Part shown: piece by piece, positions 12,281-38,720 of the stretch | Layout of the letters: every line of letters starts with the position of its first letter | How positions within the stretch are numbered: position 1 is the stretch's first letter | Origin: Stenotrophomonas maltophilia | Lineage (GTDB): Bacteria > Pseudomonadota > Gammaproteobacteria > Xanthomonadales > Xanthomonadaceae | Reading direction: 5' to 3' | NCBI RefSeq assembly: GCF_001676385.1 | Contig: NZ_LYVJ01000005.1 | Coordinates: 1 to 64,000, forward strand | Length of the DNA: 64,000 nt | Notes under the pieces: generated by a model | What the model was told of the DNA's origin: nothing | Databases searched by the model: none | Seen by the model: the letters and a program-made list of their open reading frames with translations, nothing else | Translations under genes and position numbers: made by a program

Positions 12281-12300
12281 GGCTGGGACGGCAGGGCTCC

Positions 12301-12368
12301 ATCCACGCATGGCGTGGATTTGATGACGCGGAGCATTCTGAAGTAGACCCACGCCATGCGTGGATGCC
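12301..12368. repeat. pair of GTAG/SMAG-type palindromes
   Basis: The first hairpin is atccacgc-atg-gcgtggat (12301-12319). The second begins with GTAG at 12343 and reads gtagacccacgccatgcgtg onward to 12368. They lie head to head in the gap between the convergent lpxL and O-antigen-ligase genes. This arrangement matches SMAG dimers, which can act as transcript 3' ends. Confidence 0.7.
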
Positions 12369-28049: not shown

Positions 28050-28118
28050 TTTCCAGCCAACGGCGCAGCCCCTCGTGGGTGGTGTCTGGTTGGTCGTGGA
28101 AAGCAAAAGCCGTGGGTG

Positions 28119-28222
28119 GGCCGGTCGGGTTGGGTGCGCGGGGGACGCCGTGAATCCGTCCCTGGAGGCTTGGCAGCCGCATCCATGCGGCTGACACCCC
28201 CGCGCACCCAACCCGACCGGCC
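28119..28222. repeat. variable-arm hairpin element, copy A
   Basis: Perfect 26-bp arms (28119-28144 and 28197-28222) enclose a 52-base loop. The loop starts acgccgtgaatccgtccctg and contains the small hairpin cagccgcatccatgcggctg. The loop matches copy B at about three quarters of positions, while the arms do not. See copies at 38380 and 38615. Confidence 0.85.
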
Positions 28223-28299
28223 TCCGACAGATTTCGGTGGCCTGCACCCACGGAGAAGAAAATAAGATCAAAAGCGGGTCGCGCGCTGCGCTTGCTCGT

Positions 28300-28367
28300 G
28301 TAGAGCCGAGCCCATGCTCGGCTTCACGGACCGGCCAGAAAGCAGCCGAGCGTGGGCTCGGCTCTAC
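28300..28367. repeat. SMAG (GTAG-ended) palindrome dimer
   Basis: A unit gtagagccgagcccatgctc (from 28300) faces an inverted copy ending ggctcggctctac at 28367. This head-to-head layout is the innermost part of the palindromic cassette. Confidence 0.85.
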
Positions 28368-28505
28368 AAAAAGCGGCCTGTCAGGCTGCCTTTGCTTTTG
28401 ATCTTCTTTTCTCTTCCGTGGGTGGACGTGCACGGAACCTGCCCGGCCTCACCCATGAACTGCTCTACGTGTCCACCCACGAGGGGCGGCGCCGTTGGCT
28501 GGAAA

Positions 28506-29156
28506 CTACAGTCCAGCGCCCGCGTCGCCTTCCGGCTCCAGCGCCTTCACCAGCACCGCTGCCTGCGTTCGGCTATGGCACTCGAGCTTCTTCAGGATCG
28601 CGGTGACATGCACCTTCACCGTGTTCTCGGCCAGCCCCAGCGTATAGGCAATCTGCTTGTTGAGCAGGCCATCGGCCAGGCACAGCAGCACCCGGAACTG
28701 CTGCGGGGTCAGCTGCGCCAGGCGGCTGGCCAGCAGCGCGTCGGCCTCGGACCGTTCAGCGGCCATCGCCGGGAACCACAGGCCTCCATCGAGCACCACC
28801 TGCACCGCCTCGCCAATGGTCTCGGCCGGGGCCGACTTCGGGATGAATCCGGCGGCACCGAACTGCTGGGCGCGGCGGATCACGCGCGGGTGGTCATTGG
28901 ACGAAAGGATCACCACCGGGATGTCCGGATGCGCGCCGCGCACATGCAGCAGTGCAGAGAAACCATGCGCGCCCGGCATGGTGAGGTCGAGCAGCACCAG
29001 GTCCACGTCCGGATGGGCATCCAGGGCCTCGGCGAGCGCCTCGGCACTCGCCACCTCGCGCACCTGCGCCAGCGGCAGGCTCTGCCGCAGCGACTGCACC
29101 ACCGCCGAACGCAGCAACGGATGGTCATCGGCAATCAGGATGGTGTATTCGCTCAT
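28506..29156 (-). CDS. NarL/LuxR-family response regulator
   Basis: This 216-residue two-component regulator has a receiver domain (1-120; D10 and D11 acidic pocket, phospho-acceptor D57 in LVLLDLTMPG, K in IPKSAP). A LuxR-type helix-turn-helix follows (about 147-205, LTPQQFRVLLCLADGLLNKQ and AENTVKVHVTAILKKL). The ATG at 29156 begins the receiver directly; the longer frame is not supported. It ends convergently with the hybrid kinase, which lacks its own output domain and is a good partner. The gene also follows the binding-protein gene by 28 bases and could be part of that operon. Confidence 0.9.
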   Translation of the reverse strand: MSEYTILIADDHPLLRSAVVQSLRQSLPLAQVREVASAEALAEALDAHPDVDLVLLDLTMPGAHGFSALLHVRGAHPDIPVVILSSNDHPRVIRRAQQFGAAGFIPKSAPAETIGEAVQVVLDGGLWFPAMAAERSEADALLASRLAQLTPQQFRVLLCLADGLLNKQIAYTLGLAENTVKVHVTAILKKLECHSRTQAAVLVKALEPEGDAGAGL

Positions 29157-29184
29157 GCGGCCATTGTACGGGCGGGCCGCCGCC

Positions 29185-30240
29185 TCAGCGCCCCGCGGGC
29201 TCCACGCTGCTGCGCCAGGCGTCGAGGAACTGGCGGCGCTTGAGTGCGTCCAGATACACCAGCAGGCCCGGTCCGAGCTGGATCGGGCGGCGACTGCGGC
29301 CCGGCGCACCGTCATCGTGCGTGCTGCCGGTCACGATCGGCATCAACCGCGCCTCACGCGACAGTACCTGCTGGCCGCGGGGCGACAACAGGTAATCGAG
29401 GAAACGGCGCGCCTCCTGCGGGTGTGGCCCGGTGCGCGGAATCACCGCAGTCCGCAGCACCACCAGCGTGTAGTCCTCCGGCTCGACGATCGCCAGCGGC
29501 GCGCCGGCGTCGATGCGCGCCTGTGCATAGGAACCAAGGACGTTGTAGACCAGCGACAGCTGGCCGCTGGCAACCTGGTCCAGCAGCACACCGGTGCGCT
29601 CCTCGCGCACCACGTCATTGTCGCCGAGCGCGCCCAGCAGTGCGCCGGCGATGCTGCCGCGCTGCGCGTCCTGGGTGGCCAGCAGGTAACCGACACTGCT
29701 GCGCTCGATGTCATAAGTACCGACCCTGCCACGCAGTGGTGCGCCTTCGGCACGCAGGCGATCCAGCAGCTGGCGCCGCGTATGCGGTACTTCCGCCGCA
29801 GGCAGTGCACGGGTGTTGTAGACCATCACCACCGGCTCATAGCTGATGCCGAACGCCTCGCTGCGCCACTGCGCCCATGCCGGCAACGCGGCAGTCTGCG
29901 CCGAGCGGTGCGGCACCGCATGGCCGTCGTTGACCAGCTTGGTCTGCAGGTCCATGCCACTGGAGATCAGCAGGTCCGGCGAAGCAGGACCGTGGCGGTC
30001 ATGCAGGTAACGTGCGTACAGGTCCTGGGTGATGATGTCTTCATAGATGACCTCGGTGCCCGGATGCAGGCGCTGGTAGTCGGCGATCACCACCGCGAAT
30101 ACCTCGATGTCGGTGGTGCCATGGATGCGCAGCTGTGCGGTGGCTTTGCCCTGGGCGGGGAAGCGGCGCACATCACCGGGCGCGGCCAGTACCGGCAGGG
30201 CCAACAACAGGGCAAAAGCCACTGCGAACAATCGGATCAT
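29185..30240 (-). CDS. periplasmic substrate-binding protein linked to a TctDE-like two-component system
   Basis: This 351-residue protein has a signal peptide (about 1-19, LPVLAA). Its fold resembles iron(III)/AfuA-type periplasmic binding proteins (LRIHGTTDIEVFAVVIADYQ, VIYEDIITQDLYARYL, VVMVYNTRALPA, PEDYTLVVLRTAVIPRTGPH). There is no ABC permease or ATPase gene nearby. Its ATG overlaps the kinase stop by 4 bases (ATGA), so it is translationally coupled to the sensor. This points to a ligand-presenting co-sensor in the periplasm and away from a transport function. The ligand is probably a carboxylate such as citrate, judged from the divergent transporter genes. Confidence 0.82.
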   Translation of the reverse strand: MIRLFAVAFALLLALPVLAAPGDVRRFPAQGKATAQLRIHGTTDIEVFAVVIADYQRLHPGTEVIYEDIITQDLYARYLHDRHGPASPDLLISSGMDLQTKLVNDGHAVPHRSAQTAALPAWAQWRSEAFGISYEPVVMVYNTRALPAAEVPHTRRQLLDRLRAEGAPLRGRVGTYDIERSSVGYLLATQDAQRGSIAGALLGALGDNDVVREERTGVLLDQVASGQLSLVYNVLGSYAQARIDAGAPLAIVEPEDYTLVVLRTAVIPRTGPHPQEARRFLDYLLSPRGQQVLSREARLMPIVTGSTHDDGAPGRSRRPIQLGPGLLVYLDALKRRQFLDAWRSSVEPAGR

Positions 30241-31628
30241 GGGCTGCTCCGGGGCAGGCGGACGGTGGCGATCAACCCGCCCTGCGGGCGGTTGCTCAGG
30301 TCGATGCGTCCACCGTGGCTGTCGACCACGCGCTTGACGATGGCCAGGCCAAGGCCGGCCCCCCCCGACGGTGCGCCTTCGCCGCGGGCGAAGCGCTCGA
30401 ACACGCGTTCGGCGTCCGCAGGCGCGATGCCGGCGCCGTGGTCGGCAATGGTCAGCACGGCCTGCCCGCCCTCCACGGTCAGCGCGATCTGCAGAGGGCC
30501 CTCGCCGCCGTACTTCAGTGCATTGTCGACCAGGTTCTTGATCGCCTCGCGCAACAGCAACGCATCGCCATGCACCTGTACCGGTTCGGCGGTCATCGCC
30601 AATTGCACGCGCGGTGCTGGACCGGCCTGCGGCAGGACGTCATGCAGGGCCTGGTGCACGGTCTCGGCCAGGTCCACCGCGACGAACCGCTGCAGATGCG
30701 AACGATGGATCACGCTGGCATCGCTGAGCAGCTGGTTGAGCAACCGGCTCATGTGGGTGGCGTTGCGCTCGATCGCCTGCAGGCTGCGCCGCATGTCTTC
30801 CGGATCATCATCATCCAGCGCCAGCTGCGCCTGCGCGCGCAGCGCCGCCAGTGGCGTGCGCATCTGGTGTGCAGCCTCGGCCATGAACGCGCGCAGCGTT
30901 TCGTTGCTGCTGGACAGCCGTTCCATGAAGCGGTTCAGCGCCGCCACCATCTGGTCCATCTCGCGTGGCACGTGCGCATCCAACGGCTTCAGGTCGGAAG
31001 GCTCACGCCGCGACAACTCGCGCTCCACACGCACCAGCGGCCGGAACGCGCGATGCACGCCGAAGGCGACCAGTGCCAGCAGCAGGCCGGACAACACGCC
31101 GATTGCCAGCAGCGCGCGGTTGACCATGTCCTGCGCGACGGCCTCGCGCGCGCGGCGGGTCTGCCCCACCTGCACCTGCACCTCGCCCTGCGCCGAGGCG
31201 GCGGCGAAGCTGCGGCTGACCACCACGAAGCGCACCTTCTCACCGCTGTACACCGCATCGAACAGTTGCGGATTCGCACCGGGCCGGCGCGGCGGTGCCG
31301 GCAGGTCACCGTAGCCGGTGATCAGGTTGCCGCGGCTGTCGGCCACGCGATAGAACACGCGGTCCTCAGGTGCCATCGCCAGCAGGTCCAGCGCGGCATA
31401 GGGCAGGTCGACCTGCCACTGGCCATCGACCAGGGCCACCGAATCGCCGATGGACAGCGCCGAGGACACCAGCAGGTGGTCATAGGAGCGGTTTGCAGCG
31501 CGCTGGCCATAATCGCGCGCGGCGAACAGCAGGGCGACCGCGAACACCGCCAGCAACGCCCCGAGGTAAAGCAGCAGCGTGCGCCGCAGCGAGCCTGGCG
31601 CGGCATTCGCGACACGCGTGTCAACCAT
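30237..31628 (-). CDS. TctE-like sensor histidine kinase
   Basis: This 463-residue inner-membrane kinase has two membrane helices (about 15-37 and 165-190) flanking a periplasmic domain of about 125 residues, as in TctE (tricarboxylate sensing). A HAMP segment follows. HisKA carries H254 in MAEAAHQMRTPLAALRAQ, and the HATPase contains NLVDNALKYGG and GGAGLGLAIVKRVVDSHGG. The start at 31628 overlaps the regulator stop by 8 bases (ATGGTTGA). Upstream in-frame ATGs at 31634 and 31646 are alternatives. Its stop overlaps the binding-protein gene, giving the order regulator-kinase-binding protein in one message. Confidence 0.88.
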   Translation of the reverse strand: MVDTRVANAAPGSLRRTLLLYLGALLAVFAVALLFAARDYGQRAANRSYDHLLVSSALSIGDSVALVDGQWQVDLPYAALDLLAMAPEDRVFYRVADSRGNLITGYGDLPAPPRRPGANPQLFDAVYSGEKVRFVVVSRSFAAASAQGEVQVQVGQTRRAREAVAQDMVNRALLAIGVLSGLLLALVAFGVHRAFRPLVRVERELSRREPSDLKPLDAHVPREMDQMVAALNRFMERLSSSNETLRAFMAEAAHQMRTPLAALRAQAQLALDDDDPEDMRRSLQAIERNATHMSRLLNQLLSDASVIHRSHLQRFVAVDLAETVHQALHDVLPQAGPAPRVQLAMTAEPVQVHGDALLLREAIKNLVDNALKYGGEGPLQIALTVEGGQAVLTIADHGAGIAPADAERVFERFARGEGAPSGGAGLGLAIVKRVVDSHGGRIDLSNRPQGGLIATVRLPRSSP

Positions 31629-32310
31629 CGGCATCGGAGCCGCCATTGCTGGCTTCCAGCAGGTAGCCGACGCCGCGCACCGTGGTGATGCGCAGCGGTG
31701 CGCCGGCAAGCTTCCTTCTCAGGCGGCCGACGTACAGCTCGATGGCATTCGGTCCCGCCTCATCATCGAAGCCGAACAGCCTATTGCCGATCTCATCCTT
31801 GCCTACCACCTGGCCGAGTCGGCCGACCAGGATCTCAAGCAACCGGTACTCCCGGTTGGGGAGTTCGATCGGCTCGCCATCGAGGCTGACCCGGCGCGCG
31901 GCATTGTCGAACTGGAAGCTGCCGATCTGCACCACTTCGCTGGCCTGGCCGCGTGCACGCCGCAGCAGCACGCGGCAGCGCGCCTCGAACTCGCGGAAAT
32001 CGAACGGCTTGCCAAGATAGTCGTCGGCGCCGACGTCCAGTGCCTGCACCCGGTCTTCGATGCCATCGCGTGCGGTCAGCATCAGCACGGGCGTGCTGTC
32101 GCCACGTTCGCGCATGCCAGCCAGTACCTGCAGGCCGTCGAGCTTGGGCAGGCCGATATCCAGCACCACCAGGTCGAAGCTCTGGTAGCGCAGCACGCTG
32201 GCCGCCGCCAGGCCATCGGCCTGCCAGTCCACGGCATGCCCGCTGCGGCGCATGCGACGGATGATCGCATCGGCCAGATCCGGATTGTCTTCGACCAGCA
32301 GCAGGCGCAT
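31621..32310 (-). CDS. TctD-like OmpR-family response regulator
   Basis: This 229-residue protein pairs a receiver domain (phospho-acceptor Asp in VVLDIGLPKLDG, conserved LTARDGIEDRV and GKPFDF) with a C-terminal winged helix (IELPNREYRLLEILV, NAIELYVGRLRRKL, RTVRGVGYLLE without the first R). The ATG at 32310 is used; a GTG two codons upstream is possible. It is first in the operon with the TctE-like kinase and the binding protein, and divergent from the porin-CitMHS genes 206 bases away, its probable target. Confidence 0.9.
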   Translation of the reverse strand: MRLLLVEDNPDLADAIIRRMRRSGHAVDWQADGLAAASVLRYQSFDLVVLDIGLPKLDGLQVLAGMRERGDSTPVLMLTARDGIEDRVQALDVGADDYLGKPFDFREFEARCRVLLRRARGQASEVVQIGSFQFDNAARRVSLDGEPIELPNREYRLLEILVGRLGQVVGKDEIGNRLFGFDDEAGPNAIELYVGRLRRKLAGAPLRITTVRGVGYLLEASNGGSDADG

Positions 32311-32516
32311 GGGCACAACGGTGGGAGGGGAAGCGAATGCTACCGCATGGCGCGTGGCCAGCCCCGGGGCATGGTCCGGGCGGCAGAACGAAGCCGTTTA
32401 CGCTGCACCGCACAAACCGCTGACAGGACGATGACAGCTACGGCAACCCAGACTGCGGCCACGCACCGTCCGGTGCCCACGATTGCCGCGCGCCTGGCGT
32501 GCACCTGGGAGGGTTT

Positions 32517-33692
32517 GTGGAATTCACGTTTGCCTGGCGGCGTCCTGCCGCCATGATGGCGCTGGCGGTCCTGTCGGCGCCGGCCTTTGCCGCCGAAGAC
32601 GACCGTCCGGTCACGGCCGCCCTTGGGGGCCGCCTGCACCTGGACTTCGCCACCTTCGACAACGACAACCGCGGTGCCCCGAACAAGGACGACACCGAGA
32701 TCCGCCGTGCGTGGCTGGACGTGTCGGGCAAGTTCTTCGTGGTCGACTACAAGCTGGAAGCCGACTTCTCCGGCGACCGCGTCGAGGCCAAGGACGTGTA
32801 CCTGGCGCGCAGCTTCGGCAAGGCCGGCAAGCTGACCGTCGGCCAGTTCAAGCAGTACTTCTCGCTGGATGACCGCACCAGTTCCAACTACGGCAGCTTC
32901 CTCGAGCGCGGCAACGCCGGCACCACGCTGGCTCCGCTGTACCGCCTGGGCGCATCGTGGCAGGCCAATCCGGGCGACGTCACCTGGGCCGCCAGCATCT
33001 ACAGCCTGGAGAGCATCGACGCCTGGCAGGTGAAGGGCCGTGCCGCCGGTGGCCGCGTTACCTGGGCGCCCTCTCCCAGCGACGGCGACGTGCTGCACCT
33101 GGGCCTGTCACTGGCCCGCGAGGCGTATGACAACCCCGGTGCCAACGGCGTACCGGCGCTGCGGATCCGCCCGCGCCCGGCGGGCCACCTGTCCGACAAC
33201 ATCCGCCTGACCCTGGTCGACTTTTCCACCGGCCGCGACACCGACGTCAACAAGTGGTCGCTGGAATACGCGCAGGTGCGCGGCCCGCTGTCGTGGCAGG
33301 GCGAGTTCAGTGGCGCCACCTTCGATGATGGGGCCCAGCGCGGCGACGTGATGGCGGCCTACGGCATGCTCAGCTGGTTCGTCACCGGCGAAAGCCGCGC
33401 GTACGACCGCAAGACCGGCCGCTTCGCGCGCGTGAAGGACATCCGCCACAAGGCGGGTGCCTTCGAAGTGGCGCTGCGCTACGACCAGATGCGGGGCGCG
33501 CAGCACCTGGATGGCGCGCCGGACCTGCGCCGCGGCAGCACCGAAGCGTGGACGCTGGGCGGCAACTGGTACCTGCGCGACAACCTGCGCTTCATGCTCA
33601 ACGTGATCGAAAGCCGCAACCGCGACCGCCTGGCCGGGGTCACGGTGGACCGCACGCGGGCGGTCACCGGCCGCCTGCAGTACGACTTCTAG
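32517..33692 (+). CDS. OprP/OprO-type outer-membrane porin of the citrate cluster
   Basis: This 391-residue protein has a signal peptide ending APAFA before AEDDRP. Beta-barrel strands follow, with the phosphate-selective porin O/P pattern (KLEADFSGDRVEAKDVYLAR, KLTVGQFKQYFSLDDRTSSN, WFVTGESRAYD), ending in RLQYDF. A GTG at 32517 is chosen as start because GGGAGGG lies 4-10 bases upstream; GTG 32499 and an internal ATG are alternatives. It is the first gene of a unit with the CitMHS transporter and the SDR, and probably lets tricarboxylates cross the outer membrane. Confidence 0.85.
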   Translation: MEFTFAWRRPAAMMALAVLSAPAFAAEDDRPVTAALGGRLHLDFATFDNDNRGAPNKDDTEIRRAWLDVSGKFFVVDYKLEADFSGDRVEAKDVYLARSFGKAGKLTVGQFKQYFSLDDRTSSNYGSFLERGNAGTTLAPLYRLGASWQANPGDVTWAASIYSLESIDAWQVKGRAAGGRVTWAPSPSDGDVLHLGLSLAREAYDNPGANGVPALRIRPRPAGHLSDNIRLTLVDFSTGRDTDVNKWSLEYAQVRGPLSWQGEFSGATFDDGAQRGDVMAAYGMLSWFVTGESRAYDRKTGRFARVKDIRHKAGAFEVALRYDQMRGAQHLDGAPDLRRGSTEAWTLGGNWYLRDNLRFMLNVIESRNRDRLAGVTVDRTRAVTGRLQYDF

Positions 33693-33766
33693 GCCTGAAA
33701 CTCCGGGCGCGCGCCGCCCGCGACCCTTCCACTCCCCCACGTCCTGTTTTCGCAAGGAGTCCGCAG

Positions 33767-35098
33767 ATGATGCTGAGCATCCTCGGCTTTGGCATGGTCA
33801 TTACGTTCATGTACTTGATCATGAGCAAACGCCTGTCGCCGCTCGTCGCCCTGATCACCATCCCCATCCTGTTCGCGCTGATCGGCGGCTTCGGCGCCGG
33901 CATCGACGAAATGATGCTGGAAGGCATCAAGAAGATCGCGCCGACCGGCGTGATGCTGATGTTCGCCATCCTCTACTTCGGGGTGATGATCGACGCCGGC
34001 CTGTTCGATCCGCTGGTGCGGGTCATCCTGCGCTTCGTCAAGGGCGATCCGATGAAGATCGTGCTGGGCACGGCGGTGCTGGCGATGCTGATCTCGCTCG
34101 ACGGCGACGGCTCGACCACCTACATGATCACCGTATCGGCGATGCTGCCGCTGTACCAGCGGCTTGGCATGAACGCGCTGAACATGACCTGCGTGACCAT
34201 CCTCGCCGGTGGCGTGATGAACCTGACCCCGTGGGGCGGCCCGACCGCACGCGCCGCCACCGCGCTGCATGTGGACCCGGCCGATGTGTTCGTGCCGCTG
34301 ATTCCGTCGATGGTGATCGCCTGCGCCGGCGTGTTGCTGCTGGCCTGGTACCTGGGGCTGAAGGAACGCCGCCGCCTCGGCGTGGTGACGCTGCCCAAGG
34401 GTGGCAGCTGGATGGACAACAGCGTGTCCGATGACAGCAGCCCGCTGCCAACCGTCGAGGACGCCGAAGACATCAAGCGGCCGAAGCTGCTGTGGGTGAA
34501 CCTGGCACTGACCCTCGCACTGATGACCGCGCTTATCATCGGCGTGCTGCCGATGCCAGTGCTGTTCATGGTCGGCTTCGCCGTGGCCCTGGTGATCAAC
34601 TACCCGAACCTGGCCGAGCAGCGCCGCCGCGTGGTCAACCATGCCGGCAACGTGCTGTCGGTGGTCTCGCTGATCTTCGCCGCCGGCATCTTCACCGGCA
34701 TCCTCAACAACACCGGCATGGTCGAGGCGATGTCGCACAGCTTCCTGGCGATCATTCCGGATTCGTGGGGCCCGTACCTTGCGGTCATCACGGCGGTAGC
34801 CTCGATGCCGTTCACCTTCTTCATGTCCAACGATGCGTTCTACTTCGGCGTGCTGCCGATCCTGTCCGAAGCCGCCGGCAACTACGGCATCACTCCGGTG
34901 GAAATGGCACGCGCGTCGCTGGCCGGCCAGCCGGTGCACCTGCTCAGCCCGCTGGTGCCGTCCACCTACCTGCTGGTGGGCCTGGCCAAGGTCGAATTCG
35001 CCGACCACCAGAAGTTCACTCTGAAGTGGGCCATCGCCATCTCGATGCTGCTGATGGTCGGCAGCCTGCTGTTCGGCCTGTATCCGCTCACCGCCTGA
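33767..35098 (+). CDS. CitMHS-family citrate (metal-citrate) transporter
   Basis: This 443-residue protein has about 12 membrane helices. Family blocks are MIDAGLFDPLVRVILRFVKG, SLDGDGSTTYMITVSAMLPL, LAGGVMNLTPWGGPTARAAT and LASMPFTFFMSNDAFYFGVL-like (here ASMPFTFFMSNDAFYFGVLP). CitMHS proteins import citrate complexed with Mg2+ or Ca2+ using protons. The start has AAGGAG 10 bases upstream. It lies 74 bases after the porin and 24 bases before the SDR gene, opposite the TctDE-like genes, which fits citrate-induced uptake. Confidence 0.9.
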   Translation: MMLSILGFGMVITFMYLIMSKRLSPLVALITIPILFALIGGFGAGIDEMMLEGIKKIAPTGVMLMFAILYFGVMIDAGLFDPLVRVILRFVKGDPMKIVLGTAVLAMLISLDGDGSTTYMITVSAMLPLYQRLGMNALNMTCVTILAGGVMNLTPWGGPTARAATALHVDPADVFVPLIPSMVIACAGVLLLAWYLGLKERRRLGVVTLPKGGSWMDNSVSDDSSPLPTVEDAEDIKRPKLLWVNLALTLALMTALIIGVLPMPVLFMVGFAVALVINYPNLAEQRRRVVNHAGNVLSVVSLIFAAGIFTGILNNTGMVEAMSHSFLAIIPDSWGPYLAVITAVASMPFTFFMSNDAFYFGVLPILSEAAGNYGITPVEMARASLAGQPVHLLSPLVPSTYLLVGLAKVEFADHQKFTLKWAIAISMLLMVGSLLFGLYPLTA

Positions 35099-35122
35099 CC
35101 CCTTCCCGAGGAACCTTCTGCA

Positions 35123-35863
35123 ATGACGCTTCGAATCGCTTACGTCACCAGCGGCATGGGCAGTGTCGGCACTGCCATCTGCCAGAGCCTGGCCCGCAGC
35201 GGCCACACCGTGGTCGCCGGCTGCGCGCCGAACTCGCCGCGCAAGGCCAACTGGCTGCGCGAGCAGCGCGAACAGGGCTTTGACTTCATCGCCTCCGAGG
35301 GCAATGCCACCGACTGGGCCTCGACCAGTGCCGCGTTCGCCAAGGTGCGCGCCGAGGTCGGTGAAGTGGATGTGCTGGTCAACAACTCCGGCGGCAGCCG
35401 CGACCTGCTGTTCCGGCAGATGACCGTGGAGGACTGGAATGCAGTAATCGCCTCCAACCTCAATGCACTGTTCAACCTGACCAAGCAGGTGGTCGATGGC
35501 ATGGCCACGCGGGGCTGGGGCCGCATCATCAACATCGGCTCGGTCAGCGCGCACAAGGGCCAGATCGGCCAGGTCAACTACGCCACCGCCAAAGCGGCGA
35601 TGCATGGCTTCAGCCGTGCCCTGGCCGCCGAAGTGGCGTCGCGCGGGGTCACCGTCAACACGCTGTCGCCGGGCTACATCGCCAGCCAGGCGATCAGCAG
35701 TTTCCCGCCGGACGTGCTGGACCGTCTGGCCGCCTCGGTACCAGTGCGCCGGCTCGGCCGTCCGGAAGAAGTGGCCGGCCTGTGTGCATGGCTGGCGTCC
35801 GACGATGCCTCCTATGTGACCGGTGCGGATTATCCGGTCAACGGTGGCCTGTACATGGGATAG
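35123..35863 (+). CDS. phbB: short-chain dehydrogenase, acetoacetyl-CoA reductase-like
   Basis: This 246-residue Rossmann enzyme has the N-terminal TSGMGSVGTAIC nucleotide loop, NNSGGSRDLLF, IGSVSAHKGQIGQVNYATAK with the catalytic Ser and the YxxxK pair, and the C-terminal VTGADYPVNGGLYMG. These match the PhbB/FabG branch that reduces acetoacetyl-CoA with NADPH. No phbA or phbC lies nearby, so a role in polyhydroxybutyrate synthesis is not shown. It is probably co-transcribed with the citrate transporter (24-base gap) and may handle surplus reducing power or an unrelated substrate. Confidence 0.78.
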   Translation: MTLRIAYVTSGMGSVGTAICQSLARSGHTVVAGCAPNSPRKANWLREQREQGFDFIASEGNATDWASTSAAFAKVRAEVGEVDVLVNNSGGSRDLLFRQMTVEDWNAVIASNLNALFNLTKQVVDGMATRGWGRIINIGSVSAHKGQIGQVNYATAKAAMHGFSRALAAEVASRGVTVNTLSPGYIASQAISSFPPDVLDRLAASVPVRRLGRPEEVAGLCAWLASDDASYVTGADYPVNGGLYMG

Positions 35864-35880
35864 ACCGCATCCGCGCAGGG

Positions 35881-35913
35881 CATGGATCCACGCACCTCCC
35901 CCGGTGGATCCAT
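35881..35913. terminator. hairpin after the SDR gene
   Basis: The stem catggatccac / gtggatccatg (11 bp, 11-base loop) begins 17 bases past the SDR stop. It has no T tract. It also contains the atccac sequence seen in the dispersed hairpins, so it may be a repeat acting as a transcript end. Confidence 0.5.
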
Positions 35914-36031
35914 GCCATGCGCGCATTGCGGCGCTCGCTGGAGCCCGTAAAGAAGGTTTCATGTTCCGTTCGCATAGTGGCCATGCACCGCGCATCCATG
36001 CCGGTGACCACTCCCAATGCAACGGATCCCC

Positions 36032-38332
36032 ATGCAGACCCGACACCTGACCCTCGCCGTGGCGATCGCGCTTTCCGCCGCCACCAGCGCACATGCCGCT
36101 TCCGCGGCTGACACCGCCACCACCAGCGCAGACGCCACGCTGAGCGCGCAGACGCTGGATACCGTCTCCGTGATCGGCCAGGGCGAGACCCGTCAGGTAC
36201 AGCGCATCACGGCGGTCGACAAGCAGGTGCTGCCGCCGGGGACCAGCGGCCAGAAGATCCTCGACCGCCTGCCCGGCGTGTCGGTGCAGTCCAACGATGC
36301 CTTCGGTGCCAATGAGGAATCGCAGACCATCAGCCTGCGCGGTTTCGACAAGAGCCGCCTCGGCTACACGCTGGACGGCATCCCACTGGGTGACAACAGC
36401 TACGGCAACTACAACGGCCTGAGCATCGCCCGCGCGATCATCGCCGAGAACCTGGCCGGCGCCGAACTGTCGCAGGGCATCGGCTCGCTGGGCGTGGCCT
36501 CGACCAGCAACCTGGGCGGCACCATCCAGTATTTCTCGATGGATCCCTCCACCGAATTCGGTGGCCGCGCCAGCGTCACCGTCGGCGACAACAACCAGCG
36601 CCGCGGCTACCTGCGTGTGGATACCGGCGACCTCAACGGCTTCTCGGCCTACGTGTCCGGCGTGCACCAGGACCAGGACATGTGGGCCGCGCCCTACCAG
36701 AACCAGACCACCCGCCAGTTCAACGCCAAGGCGGTGTGGAATGTCGGCGAGCACCGCTTCGGTGCGTTCGTGGCCACCTCGCGCGCCAGCCAGGCCAACT
36801 ACGCCTATCTGTCCAAGGACATGCTGGCACGTGGCCTGGGCTATGACTGGAACATCTATGCGCCGGACTGGGACCGCGCCGTCGCCGCCGCGTACTGTGC
36901 GCCGGGCACCTACAACAAGGCGCGCTGCGCCTTCAGCGGCGGCGTCAACAGTATCGACGATGCGTACTACCAGAGCCGTGCGCTGCGTGACGACAACCTG
37001 TACTCGGTCGATGCCGACCTGCGCCTGGGCGAGCAGGGCCGGCTGAAGCTGCTGGCCTATCACCACGACAACCGTGGCCAGGGCCACTGGTGGGCGCCGG
37101 GCCAGCCGTCCTATCCGGGGACCGACAGGATGCTGCCGATCTCGATCCGCAGCACCAACTACACGATCAACCGCGATGGACTGACCGCGGCACTGTCGTG
37201 GACGGTGGGCATCCACGAGCTGGAAGCCGGCTTGTGGTACGAGCAGAACGACCATAATGTCTCGCGCAATTTCTATTACATCAGCGGCCCGTTCCTGGAC
37301 GACCTGTACCTGAAGAACCCGGACCGCCTGCTGTTCAACCAGGACTTCGACATCCGCACGCGCCAGTTCTACGTGCAGGACCGCATGCGCTTCCTGGACC
37401 AGCGGCTGACCGTGGACGTGGGCATCAAGAGTCCCAACACGCGCATGCGCGCCACCGCCAACCCGGGCGTGGAAACCCGCATCGCCTCGGGCACGCTGAC
37501 CGCCAAGGAATCGGTGCTGCCGCAGCTGGGCGTGGGCTTCAGGCTCAACGCCAACAATGAACTGTTCGCCTCGTACGCCGAGAACATCGCCGCCTTCGTC
37601 GGCGGTGGCAGCGGCGGCCCGCTGCAGGTGTCGCCCGAATCGTTCGCCGCCAGCGCCGGGCTGGAGCCGGAGAAGTCCAAGAGCCTGGAAGCCGGCTTCC
37701 GCACCTTCGGCGAGAAGTACCAGGCGTCGATCGCGGCCTACAACGTGACGTTCGACAATCGCCTGCTGTCACTGAACCCGTGCTCGAGCATCGAAGTCGG
37801 CACGCGTCCGGAGTGCGTGACACGCTTCATCAACGTCGGTTCGGTGAAGAGCCACGGTGCGGAACTGACCTTCATCCTCAAGCCGATCGACGGCCTGCAG
37901 TGGTACAACGCACTGTCCTGGAACAAGACCACCTACGAGGATGACTACACCTCGGGCGGTGCTATCGTGCCGGTGGCCGGCAAGATCACGGTGGATACGC
38001 CGCAGCGCATGGCTTCCAGTGAAATCAGCTGGAACCGCGACGGTTTCTTCGCCAGCCTGCGTGCCAAGTACACCGGCAAGCGCTACTACACCTACACCAA
38101 CGACCAGTCGGTGCCGGGCGTGACCACCTTCGACGCCGGTGCGGGCTACGACTTCGGCCCGGGCCTGGGCCTGCGCAACGTGCGGGTGTCGTTGAATGCG
38201 ACCAACCTGACCAACAAGCGCTACGCCGGCCAGCTGAGTTCGTTCGCACCGACCGATCCGAAGGGCACGCGCTATGCGATCCATGCCAGTGCACCGCGGC
38301 AGCTGTTCATGACGGTGGCGGCGGAGTTCTAA
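36032..38332 (+). CDS. TonB-dependent outer-membrane receptor
   Basis: This 766-residue receptor has a signal peptide (about 1-22, TSAHA), a TonB-box region (about LDTVSVIGQGE), a plug domain (about 50-165: KILDRLPGVSVQSNDAFGAN, ISLRGFDKSRLGYTLDGIPL) and a 22-strand barrel ending MTVAAEF. It has no N-terminal signalling extension, so it does not feed a sigma factor. A start at 36017 is possible; both have weak ribosome sites. It follows the citrate genes after a 168-base gap with a hairpin and so may be separately transcribed. A ferric-citrate or other siderophore ligand is a guess from position. Confidence 0.87.
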   Translation: MQTRHLTLAVAIALSAATSAHAASAADTATTSADATLSAQTLDTVSVIGQGETRQVQRITAVDKQVLPPGTSGQKILDRLPGVSVQSNDAFGANEESQTISLRGFDKSRLGYTLDGIPLGDNSYGNYNGLSIARAIIAENLAGAELSQGIGSLGVASTSNLGGTIQYFSMDPSTEFGGRASVTVGDNNQRRGYLRVDTGDLNGFSAYVSGVHQDQDMWAAPYQNQTTRQFNAKAVWNVGEHRFGAFVATSRASQANYAYLSKDMLARGLGYDWNIYAPDWDRAVAAAYCAPGTYNKARCAFSGGVNSIDDAYYQSRALRDDNLYSVDADLRLGEQGRLKLLAYHHDNRGQGHWWAPGQPSYPGTDRMLPISIRSTNYTINRDGLTAALSWTVGIHELEAGLWYEQNDHNVSRNFYYISGPFLDDLYLKNPDRLLFNQDFDIRTRQFYVQDRMRFLDQRLTVDVGIKSPNTRMRATANPGVETRIASGTLTAKESVLPQLGVGFRLNANNELFASYAENIAAFVGGGSGGPLQVSPESFAASAGLEPEKSKSLEAGFRTFGEKYQASIAAYNVTFDNRLLSLNPCSSIEVGTRPECVTRFINVGSVKSHGAELTFILKPIDGLQWYNALSWNKTTYEDDYTSGGAIVPVAGKITVDTPQRMASSEISWNRDGFFASLRAKYTGKRYYTYTNDQSVPGVTTFDAGAGYDFGPGLGLRNVRVSLNATNLTNKRYAGQLSSFAPTDPKGTRYAIHASAPRQLFMTVAAEF

Positions 38333-38379
38333 ATCGAAAGCGGGCGCTGCGGCGCGTTGATTGTTCCTGCATGGCGTGG

Positions 38380-38473
38380 GTAGGCAGGCCCATGCAGGAC
38401 ACGCCGTAAACCCATCCATGGGGGCTCGATCGGCGCATCCATGCGCCTCACGGTCCTGCATGGGCCTGCCTAC
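38380..38473. repeat. variable-arm hairpin element, copy B
   Basis: Perfect 21-bp arms run from gtaggcaggcccatgcagga (38380 on) to the matching 38453-38473 and end in GTAG/CTAC. They enclose a 52-base loop starting acgccgtaaacccatccatg. The loop is the same length as in copy A and matches it at about 39 of 52 positions, while the arms differ. Confidence 0.85.
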
Positions 38474-38524
38474 CCCCGCTGGAGAGTTCCCCGCGCCGGC
38501 GCGGAGGCAATGGAAAGCAAGAGC

Positions 38525-38563
38525 AAAAGCAAAGAGCCGGGCATTGCCCGGCTCTTTGCTTTT
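38525..38563. terminator. strong bidirectional terminator after the TonB-dependent receptor
   Basis: Perfect 18-bp arms (aaaagcaaagagccgggc and its complement) have the loop att. The stem ends in an A-run on one side and a T-run on the other, so it should work in both directions. Confidence 0.85.
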
Positions 38564-38614
38564 CAAGCGCAATCCCTCTGGTGGACCTGCTACCGCGCCC
38601 GCAGAAAACTGTCT

Positions 38615-38720
38615 GGAGGAGGCGGGGCACCCTGGCCAGGACCGTTGGCGCCATGGAGGGCGCCATCGAGCACCATGGAGGGGCTTTTGCGTGTCCTGGC
38701 CAGGGTGCCCCGCCTCCTCC
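38615..38720. repeat. variable-arm hairpin element, copy C (inverted)
   Basis: Perfect 28-bp arms (38615-38642 and 38693-38720) enclose a 50-base loop. Read on the minus strand, the loop starts acgcaaaagcccctccatgg and lines up with the loops of copies A and B. The arms share only aggac next to the loop with copy B. It ends 42 bases from the stop of the DUF1704 gene. Confidence 0.85.

What the first reader, a model, noticed from the sequence alone, without database searches (positions are those of the whole stretch)
28119..38720. Hairpin family with conserved loop but different perfectly paired arms (three copies)
Copies at 28119-28222, 38380-38473 and 38615-38720 have loops of 52, 52 and 50 bases that align (A and B match at about 39 of 52 positions). 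The arms of 26, 21 and 28 bp are perfect within each copy and largely unrelated between copies. Independent drift should have broken pairing. Something must restore the match, such as template-switch repair, copying of one arm from the other, or insertion of the loop unit into pre-existing palindromes. I recall similar sequences as common in xanthomonads but know no accepted name or mechanism.
Basis: partly seen in the sequence, partly recalled or inferred. Interest (0 to 1): 0.75.

Follow-up and report, generated by a model that had tools for sequence, protein, structure and literature searches.

The report
Mobile hairpins with self-mending arms
A small repeated DNA hairpin, related to one described in Yersinia, sits at about a hundred places in this bacterium; its tip is conserved across a large class of bacteria while its stem drifts freely, apparently because DNA copying keeps re-matching the two sides.

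Summary
The three hairpins are real: arms of 26, 23 and 28 bp are perfect, and the A and B loops match at 39 of 52 positions. C carries the loop on the other strand. The genome holds 98 covariance-model matches. About half of the copies checked have flawless inner arms (34 of 69), and many arms fall into recurrent classes. The core occurs in 54 of 198 genomes of the family and in other Gammaproteobacteria. It matches the printed core of YPAL/RU-2, a miniature insertion sequence of Yersinia, and Rfam Ysr224 below threshold. So a described relative exists. In orthologous copies 33 arm changes are paired on both sides where about 0.9 are expected by chance, and two copies have an inverted loop. 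Arm matching plus spacer inversion is the published signature of template switching, which I favour. Selection on RNA, and insertion into existing palindromes, remain rivals. That these are mobile RsmA/CsrA-binding RNAs is open and untested.

The parts
28119..28144 (+). copy A, 5' arm (26 bp, perfect)
28145..28196 (-). copy A, core (52 nt); CANGGANG octamers on the minus strand at 28157-28164 and 28180-28187
   Evidence: CM match C5:28131-28210 minus, 97 bits
28197..28222 (+). copy A, 3' arm
38378..38400 (+). copy B, 5' arm (23 bp, perfect)
38401..38452 (-). copy B, core (52 nt); CANGGANG octamers on the minus strand at 38413-38420 and 38436-38443
   Evidence: CM match C5:38387-38466 minus, 98.3 bits
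38453..38475 (+). copy B, 3' arm
38615..38642 (+). copy C, arm (28 bp, perfect)
38643..38692 (+). copy C, diverged core (50 nt); CANGGANG octamers on the plus strand at 38652-38659 and 38674-38681
   Evidence: CM match C5:38629-38706 plus, 71.4 bits
38693..38720 (+). copy C, arm
28050..28082 (+). left outer inverted repeat of the intergenic module that holds copy A
28473..28505 (-). right outer inverted repeat of that module (1 mismatch in 33)
38525..38563 (.). terminator-like perfect hairpin between B and C; recognisable, not always perfect, in the 26 aligned orthologous loci

Best explanation
These are copies of a dispersed, non-coding palindromic element whose conserved part is a roughly 50-nt core forming a three-way junction, the same core as in YPAL/RU-2 of Yersinia (shown by sequence). 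The arms are part of the element and are copied with it (shown for the recurrent classes), but their sequence is nearly free. After a base changes in one arm, the other arm is often rewritten to match, most likely by polymerase template switching between the arms during replication (inferred). The same process sometimes copies through the loop and inverts it (inversions shown; mechanism inferred). The core stays constant because it is under some selection, perhaps for spread or for an RNA role (inferred). Copies often lie as facing pairs inside larger intergenic modules that also carry other palindromes.
For: Same core and fold: RNAalifold on 51 diverse copies shows both-sided changes in 24 of 28 pairs. 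Paired arm changes: 33 versus 0.94 expected, with 85 unpaired; example L178/L179, two paired changes and no unpaired arm or loop change. Transversions are 12 of 33 paired changes, near the share among flank substitutions (122 of 330 and 133 of 337). Loop inversion at L086 (arms unchanged) and L070 (C-type arms, two mismatches). One search found 1 inverted of 165 orthologous copies (L086; L070 is not in its set). Of 4 paralogous copies it flagged, the two at the ends of contigs C6 and C13 (L019, L042) look like one more inverted loop; the other two (L217, L036) look like false flags. Template switching homogenises arms and inverts spacers (PMC8604942, abstract and one section); it can create and maintain hairpins (PMC8794818, abstract with introduction and one section). 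YPAL core match: local score 47 for copy B against a maximum of 24 in 300 shuffles; A 34 against 23; C 26 against 24.
Against: No event was watched; recombination between the arms, or import of a whole hairpin from another strain, could give the same patterns. About half of own-genome copies and 21 of 25 from G014 carry at least one inner mismatch, and outside the family 1-4 mismatches are common, so correction is slow or weak in some genomes. Template-switching inverted repeats in yeast have short spacers; here the spacer is about 52 nt. The 64% transitions among paired changes is also close to the 61% reported for instantaneous compensatory changes in rRNA stems, so that ratio does not separate DNA repair from RNA selection. 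Inversion is rare.
Confidence: 0.58

Rival explanations
1. Selection on RNA keeps the stem: the element is transcribed and single-arm mutations are compensated by second mutations.
For: 24 of 28 pairs covary. Own-genome copies that follow a same-strand gene lie 30-124 nt after its stop in 40 of 42 cases. Rfam Ysr224, a Yersinia sRNA, shares the core. A review says YPAL might influence stability of upstream transcripts. Half-way states such as L065 exist.
Against: On the other strand this would be a G.U excess, but C.C (12) also exceeds G.G (3), so it looks like a base asymmetry rather than wobble tolerance; flank G>A and C>T rates per site are about equal, and in the mini-hairpin stems the skew runs the other way (G.T 8, A.C 3 over 11 pairs, the two outermost P3 pairs left out). 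Loop inversions are not predicted.
Confidence: 0.25
2. The core inserts into existing perfect palindromes such as terminators, so each copy's arms are simply its target.
For: YPAL targets span or adjoin dyad symmetry (PMC2229807, passages). Other repeats sit inside the tips of the mini-hairpins P2 and P3. At the L018 site 18 of 20 fetched relatives lack a recognisable core; by eye at least 8 of them (L385, L386, L389, L391, L392, L396, L400, L402) have a short perfect hairpin that differs between species.
Against: Arms recur in classes together with the core. At one orthologous site arms differ between species with the core in place. L393, L394, L395 and L397 show no such hairpin (by eye). I found no filled and empty pair for the core itself.
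Confidence: 0.12
3. Ectopic recombination or gene conversion between copies, or import from other strains, swaps whole hairpins.
For: The upstream B site carries three arm types and the downstream C site at least three; the A module occurs in both orientations.
Against: It moves paired variants but does not create them; paired single-site changes occur at unique-arm sites such as L018.
Confidence: 0.1

Closest known systems
YPAL / RU-2 (Yersinia palindromic sequence)
   Same: Core sequence and order of the two GGA mini-hairpins; intergenic; many copies.
   Different: YPAL is about 168 bp with an internal imperfect inverted repeat; in the printed copy only 6 bp next to the core pair without a break. 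Here 98-106 bp hairpins with long arms, often in facing pairs. The review lists YPAL only from Yersinia and Erwinia carotovora.
Rfam Ysr224 (RF02770)
   Different: 36.4 bits against a gathering score of 70; arms differ.
REP elements (GTAG/CGTC-tagged) and REPINs
   Same: Intergenic palindromes, facing pairs, many copies.
   Different: REPs are 20-40 bp with a tag (start of abstract; passages); these are about 100 bp and I see no constant tag.
Csr/Rsm sRNAs
   Same: GGA in hairpin loops, often CANGGANG.
   Different: No transcript or binding shown; no Rfam family over its gathering score in the 8 loci searched, only 31 sub-threshold matches.

Membership tests
YPAL / RU-2 | core sequence | tested here: met
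   against the sequence printed in PMC2759123 Table 1b; clear for A and B, marginal for C (26 against 24)
YPAL / RU-2 | about 168-bp unit | tested here: not met
   the three window hairpins are 98-106 bp with full arms; local alignment covers little beyond the core
YPAL / RU-2 | target duplications of 3-26 bp | tested here: inconclusive
   no filled and empty pair found for the core
YPAL / RU-2 | insertion just downstream of stop codons (recalled from De Gregorio 2006, not held) | tested here: inconclusive
   42 of 68 own-genome copies with a called upstream gene follow a same-strand gene
REP | 20-40 bp stem with GTAG or CGTC tag | tested here: not met
   size and alignment
REP | RAYT transposase association | not tested
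   no search made
Csr/Rsm-binding RNA | GGA in apical loops | tested here: met
   two CANGGANG in 123 of 130 distinct loops; GGA in the P3 region in 105 of 107 CM matches, but the full octamer there in only 82 of 107
Csr/Rsm-binding RNA | CsrA/RsmA in the host | tested here: met
   91 of 91 genus genomes, including genomes without the element, so it does not discriminate
Csr/Rsm-binding RNA | transcription of the GGA strand and binding | not testable with these tools
   no expression data; Ysr224 runs on the opposite strand
Template-switch inverted repeat | arm homogenisation and spacer inversion | tested here: met
   pattern only, no event observed

The most novel reading that the evidence does not exclude
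A mobile palindrome that spread through the Gammaproteobacteria as a carrier of paired RsmA/CsrA binding hairpins: up to about a hundred copies per genome act as dispersed decoys or local sites for the global regulator, and template switching frees the stem from sequence constraint. (Odds lowered from 0.18 to 0.16 after counting the full octamer in P3 in only 52 of 75 matches outside Xanthomonas.)
Probability: 0.16. Interest if true: 0.82.

Novelty: new variant of a known kind. Interest (0 to 1): 0.55.

Why it matters
It links a repeat known from Yersinia to a class-wide family and offers many natural copies in which arm correction and loop inversion can be counted, a chance to measure template switching in wild bacteria. 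It also gives a caution: strong covariation in a stem need not mean RNA selection. If the GGA loops bind RsmA, a mobile element would be rewiring a global regulator.

Tried and rejected
Wobble test for RNA selection: at first the A.C excess (collapsed events 70 to 20) looked like selection on the GGA strand; transversions show the same direction (C.C 12, G.G 3) and the mini-hairpin stems the opposite one, so I dropped it as evidence. Promoter or terminator motif beside the element: flanks printed, nothing convincing by eye. Strand relative to genes is mixed (my own codon-based gene caller). First crude gene calling was replaced. Empty site for the whole module in 15 relatives: in the 12 fetched sequences that one search printed or searched (two of the 14 fetched, L415 and L417, were not looked at) I saw no clean empty site. 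Papers looked at without use: PMC5193452, PMC5864184 and PMC2267715 (passages; the last lists YPAL as a Y. pestis family). Dropped rows: 13 of the 80 listed loci (Stenotrophomonas and one close relative) were left out, as were 38 further stretches that one search counted but did not list; 67 of its 107 matches were laid out. Caveats: my finder uses a motif containing the P2 TCC (up to 3 mismatches) and demands 13 of 18 paired bases, so P2 conservation and pairing are partly built in; P3 is outside the motif. Clusters were limited to small arm distance, so arm rates are biased low.

Full report
OBSERVATION. The three hairpins are present and far beyond chance. A (28119-28222), B (38378-38475) and C (38615-38720) have perfect arms of 26, 23 and 28 bp. 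The A and B loops match at 39 of 52 positions; C's loop is homologous on the opposite strand. B and C thus form a facing pair, with a terminator-like hairpin between them at 38525-38563. Across the genome perfection is common but not the rule: 34 of 69 distinct copies have no mismatch in the inner 20 pairs, 22 have one and 13 have more; in G032 it is 17 of 38, in G014 only 4 of 25.

HOW MANY. A loop pattern found 69 places in the own genome with up to 3 mismatches, against 1 for the reversed control. A covariance model built from 51 copies found 98 matches at E 0.001 or better, of which 84 score above 60 bits. In the genus 50 of 61 genomes have pattern matches with up to 2 mismatches, up to 130 in one; 11 have none and four of the 50 (G012, G018, G020, G050) have only one or two. 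In the family 54 of 198 genomes and 16 of 54 genera match. In a draw of 398 genomes of the phylum 30 match at E 1e-5; all 30 are of the same class, but the answer does not show how many of the other 368 lie outside it. The model gave 107 matches in the 78 loci put to it: 67 of the 80 listed loci plus 11 comEA loci.

ANATOMY. RNAalifold on 51 copies finds 28 pairs, 24 with both-sided changes. Two CANGGANG octamers are present in 123 of 130 distinct loops. In P2 the two N positions vary while the other six are kept in 129-130 of 130; in P3 all eight positions are nearly constant. The two GGA triplets have 20 nt between them. Among 107 model matches GGA is in the P3 region in 105 (75 of the 75 outside my Xanthomonas set), though the full octamer is there in only 52 of those 75; P3 was not part of the pattern that fetched the named loci, but it is part of the model. 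CANGGANG apical hexaloops are described as high-affinity CsrA/RsmE sites, with an optimal spacing of 18 nt (PMC4894983, passages; PMC4353343, passages).

ARMS. In the own genome 60 copies were laid out with arms. Several classes recur, differing inside a class by paired changes; others look unique. Of 67 model matches laid out, most from other genera, 51 have arms of 20 bp or more; only 8 of those 51 are without a mismatch, and 11 of the 16 short ones (the arm was chosen to maximise pairing, so this is generous). In orthologous copies at four sites 19 clusters gave 140 tree edges, with 33 paired Watson-Crick changes and 85 unpaired; even scatter gives 0.94 paired. Examples: L178 and L179 differ by two paired changes with no unpaired arm change and identical loops; L064 and L066 carry a paired change of which L065 shows the half-way state. 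Paired changes are 21 transitions and 12 transversions. The transversion share (36%) is like that of flank substitutions (37% and 39%), but rRNA stems show a similar 61% transitions among instantaneous paired changes, so this does not decide.

INVERSIONS. At the B/C site L086 has the Z-type upstream arms, fully paired, with the loop inverted, and L070 has C-type arms with two mismatches and the loop inverted. A systematic check found 1 inverted of 165 orthologous copies, L086; L070 is not among them, because the finder misses diverged cores. Among 146 paralogous copies it flagged 4 with the conserved flank on the wrong side; the two at the ends of contigs C6 and C13 (L019, L042), with near-identical surroundings, look real, the other two do not. 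At the A site the module of about 456 bp, bounded by 33-bp inverted repeats (28050-28082 and 28473-28505), occurs in both orientations between strains (read by eye: L099 against L106).

NESTING. The core's mini-hairpins are themselves targets: L087, L088, L107, L110, L416 and the own-genome L034/L035 carry other palindromic DNA in the P3 tip, and L413 and L416 in the P2 tip. Compared with L408, which has the same arms, the insert in the own copy lies between GGCGCC and CCATGGCGCC of P3, with no obvious target duplication. At the L018 site 18 of 20 fetched relatives lack a recognisable core; by eye at least 8 of these show a short perfect hairpin with its own sequence and at least 4 show none. 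This keeps alive the idea that such units settle in hairpins, but no filled and empty pair was found for the core.

WHAT IT IS. The RU-2/YPAL sequence printed by Delihas (PMC2759123, passages) contains the same core: copy B aligns with score 47 against a shuffle maximum of 24, A 34 against 23, C only 26 against 24. Rfam Ysr224 also contains it, below the gathering score (36.4 against 70). The review (PMC2229807, passages) says YPAL makes target duplications of 3-26 bp, goes to dyad symmetries and might influence transcript stability. The primary paper (De Gregorio 2006) is not held. Searches for a description outside Yersinia/Erwinia listed none that I recognised; only open-licence papers are held and I saw mostly listings. 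This is membership of a core family, not identity with YPAL: unit length and arm structure differ and target duplication was not shown.

MECHANISM. Shown: matched and changing arms, paired changes, loop inversions, a conserved core. Inferred: template switching between the arms. Abraham and Hazkani-Covo (PMC8604942, abstract and one section) report that such switching homogenises arms and inverts spacers in yeast; Monttinen and Loytynoja (PMC8794818, abstract with introduction and one section) that it can create and maintain hairpins. Against: the spacer here is long, many copies are imperfect, no event was observed, and recombination is not excluded.

FUNCTION OF THE CORE. Open. Placement is mixed: of 71 own-genome copies 42 follow a same-strand gene, 26 face the start of an opposite-strand gene, 2 have no called upstream gene and 1 lies inside a called gene. 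The GGA strand is therefore often antisense to the adjacent gene, and Ysr224 lies on the other strand, which weakens the RsmA reading. RsmA is present in 91 of 91 genus genomes, including some without the element.

Noticed in passing
L034, L035, L087, L088, L107, L110, L413, L416: Other palindromic sequences of roughly 80 bp are inserted in the tips of the core's mini-hairpins P2 and P3.
   Followed up: partly
L405:726-1250: A composite unit of about 525 bp (facing pair plus flanks ending in GCAGGGCTGCGCCCTGC-like palindromes) recurs with about the same ends at dozens of other places in 15 relatives.
   Followed up: partly
G469:C1:94430-95646; L241:1060-1646: Arrays of the element with regular spacing, about 227 bp (six same-strand copies) and 293 bp (three copies).
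   Followed up: no
window 28299-28368 and 12300-12366: Further long near-perfect hairpins; the first has arms beginning TGTAGAGCCGAGCC and resembles the SMAG repeats of Stenotrophomonas (recalled, not tested).
   Followed up: no
Unexplained.
   Followed up: partly
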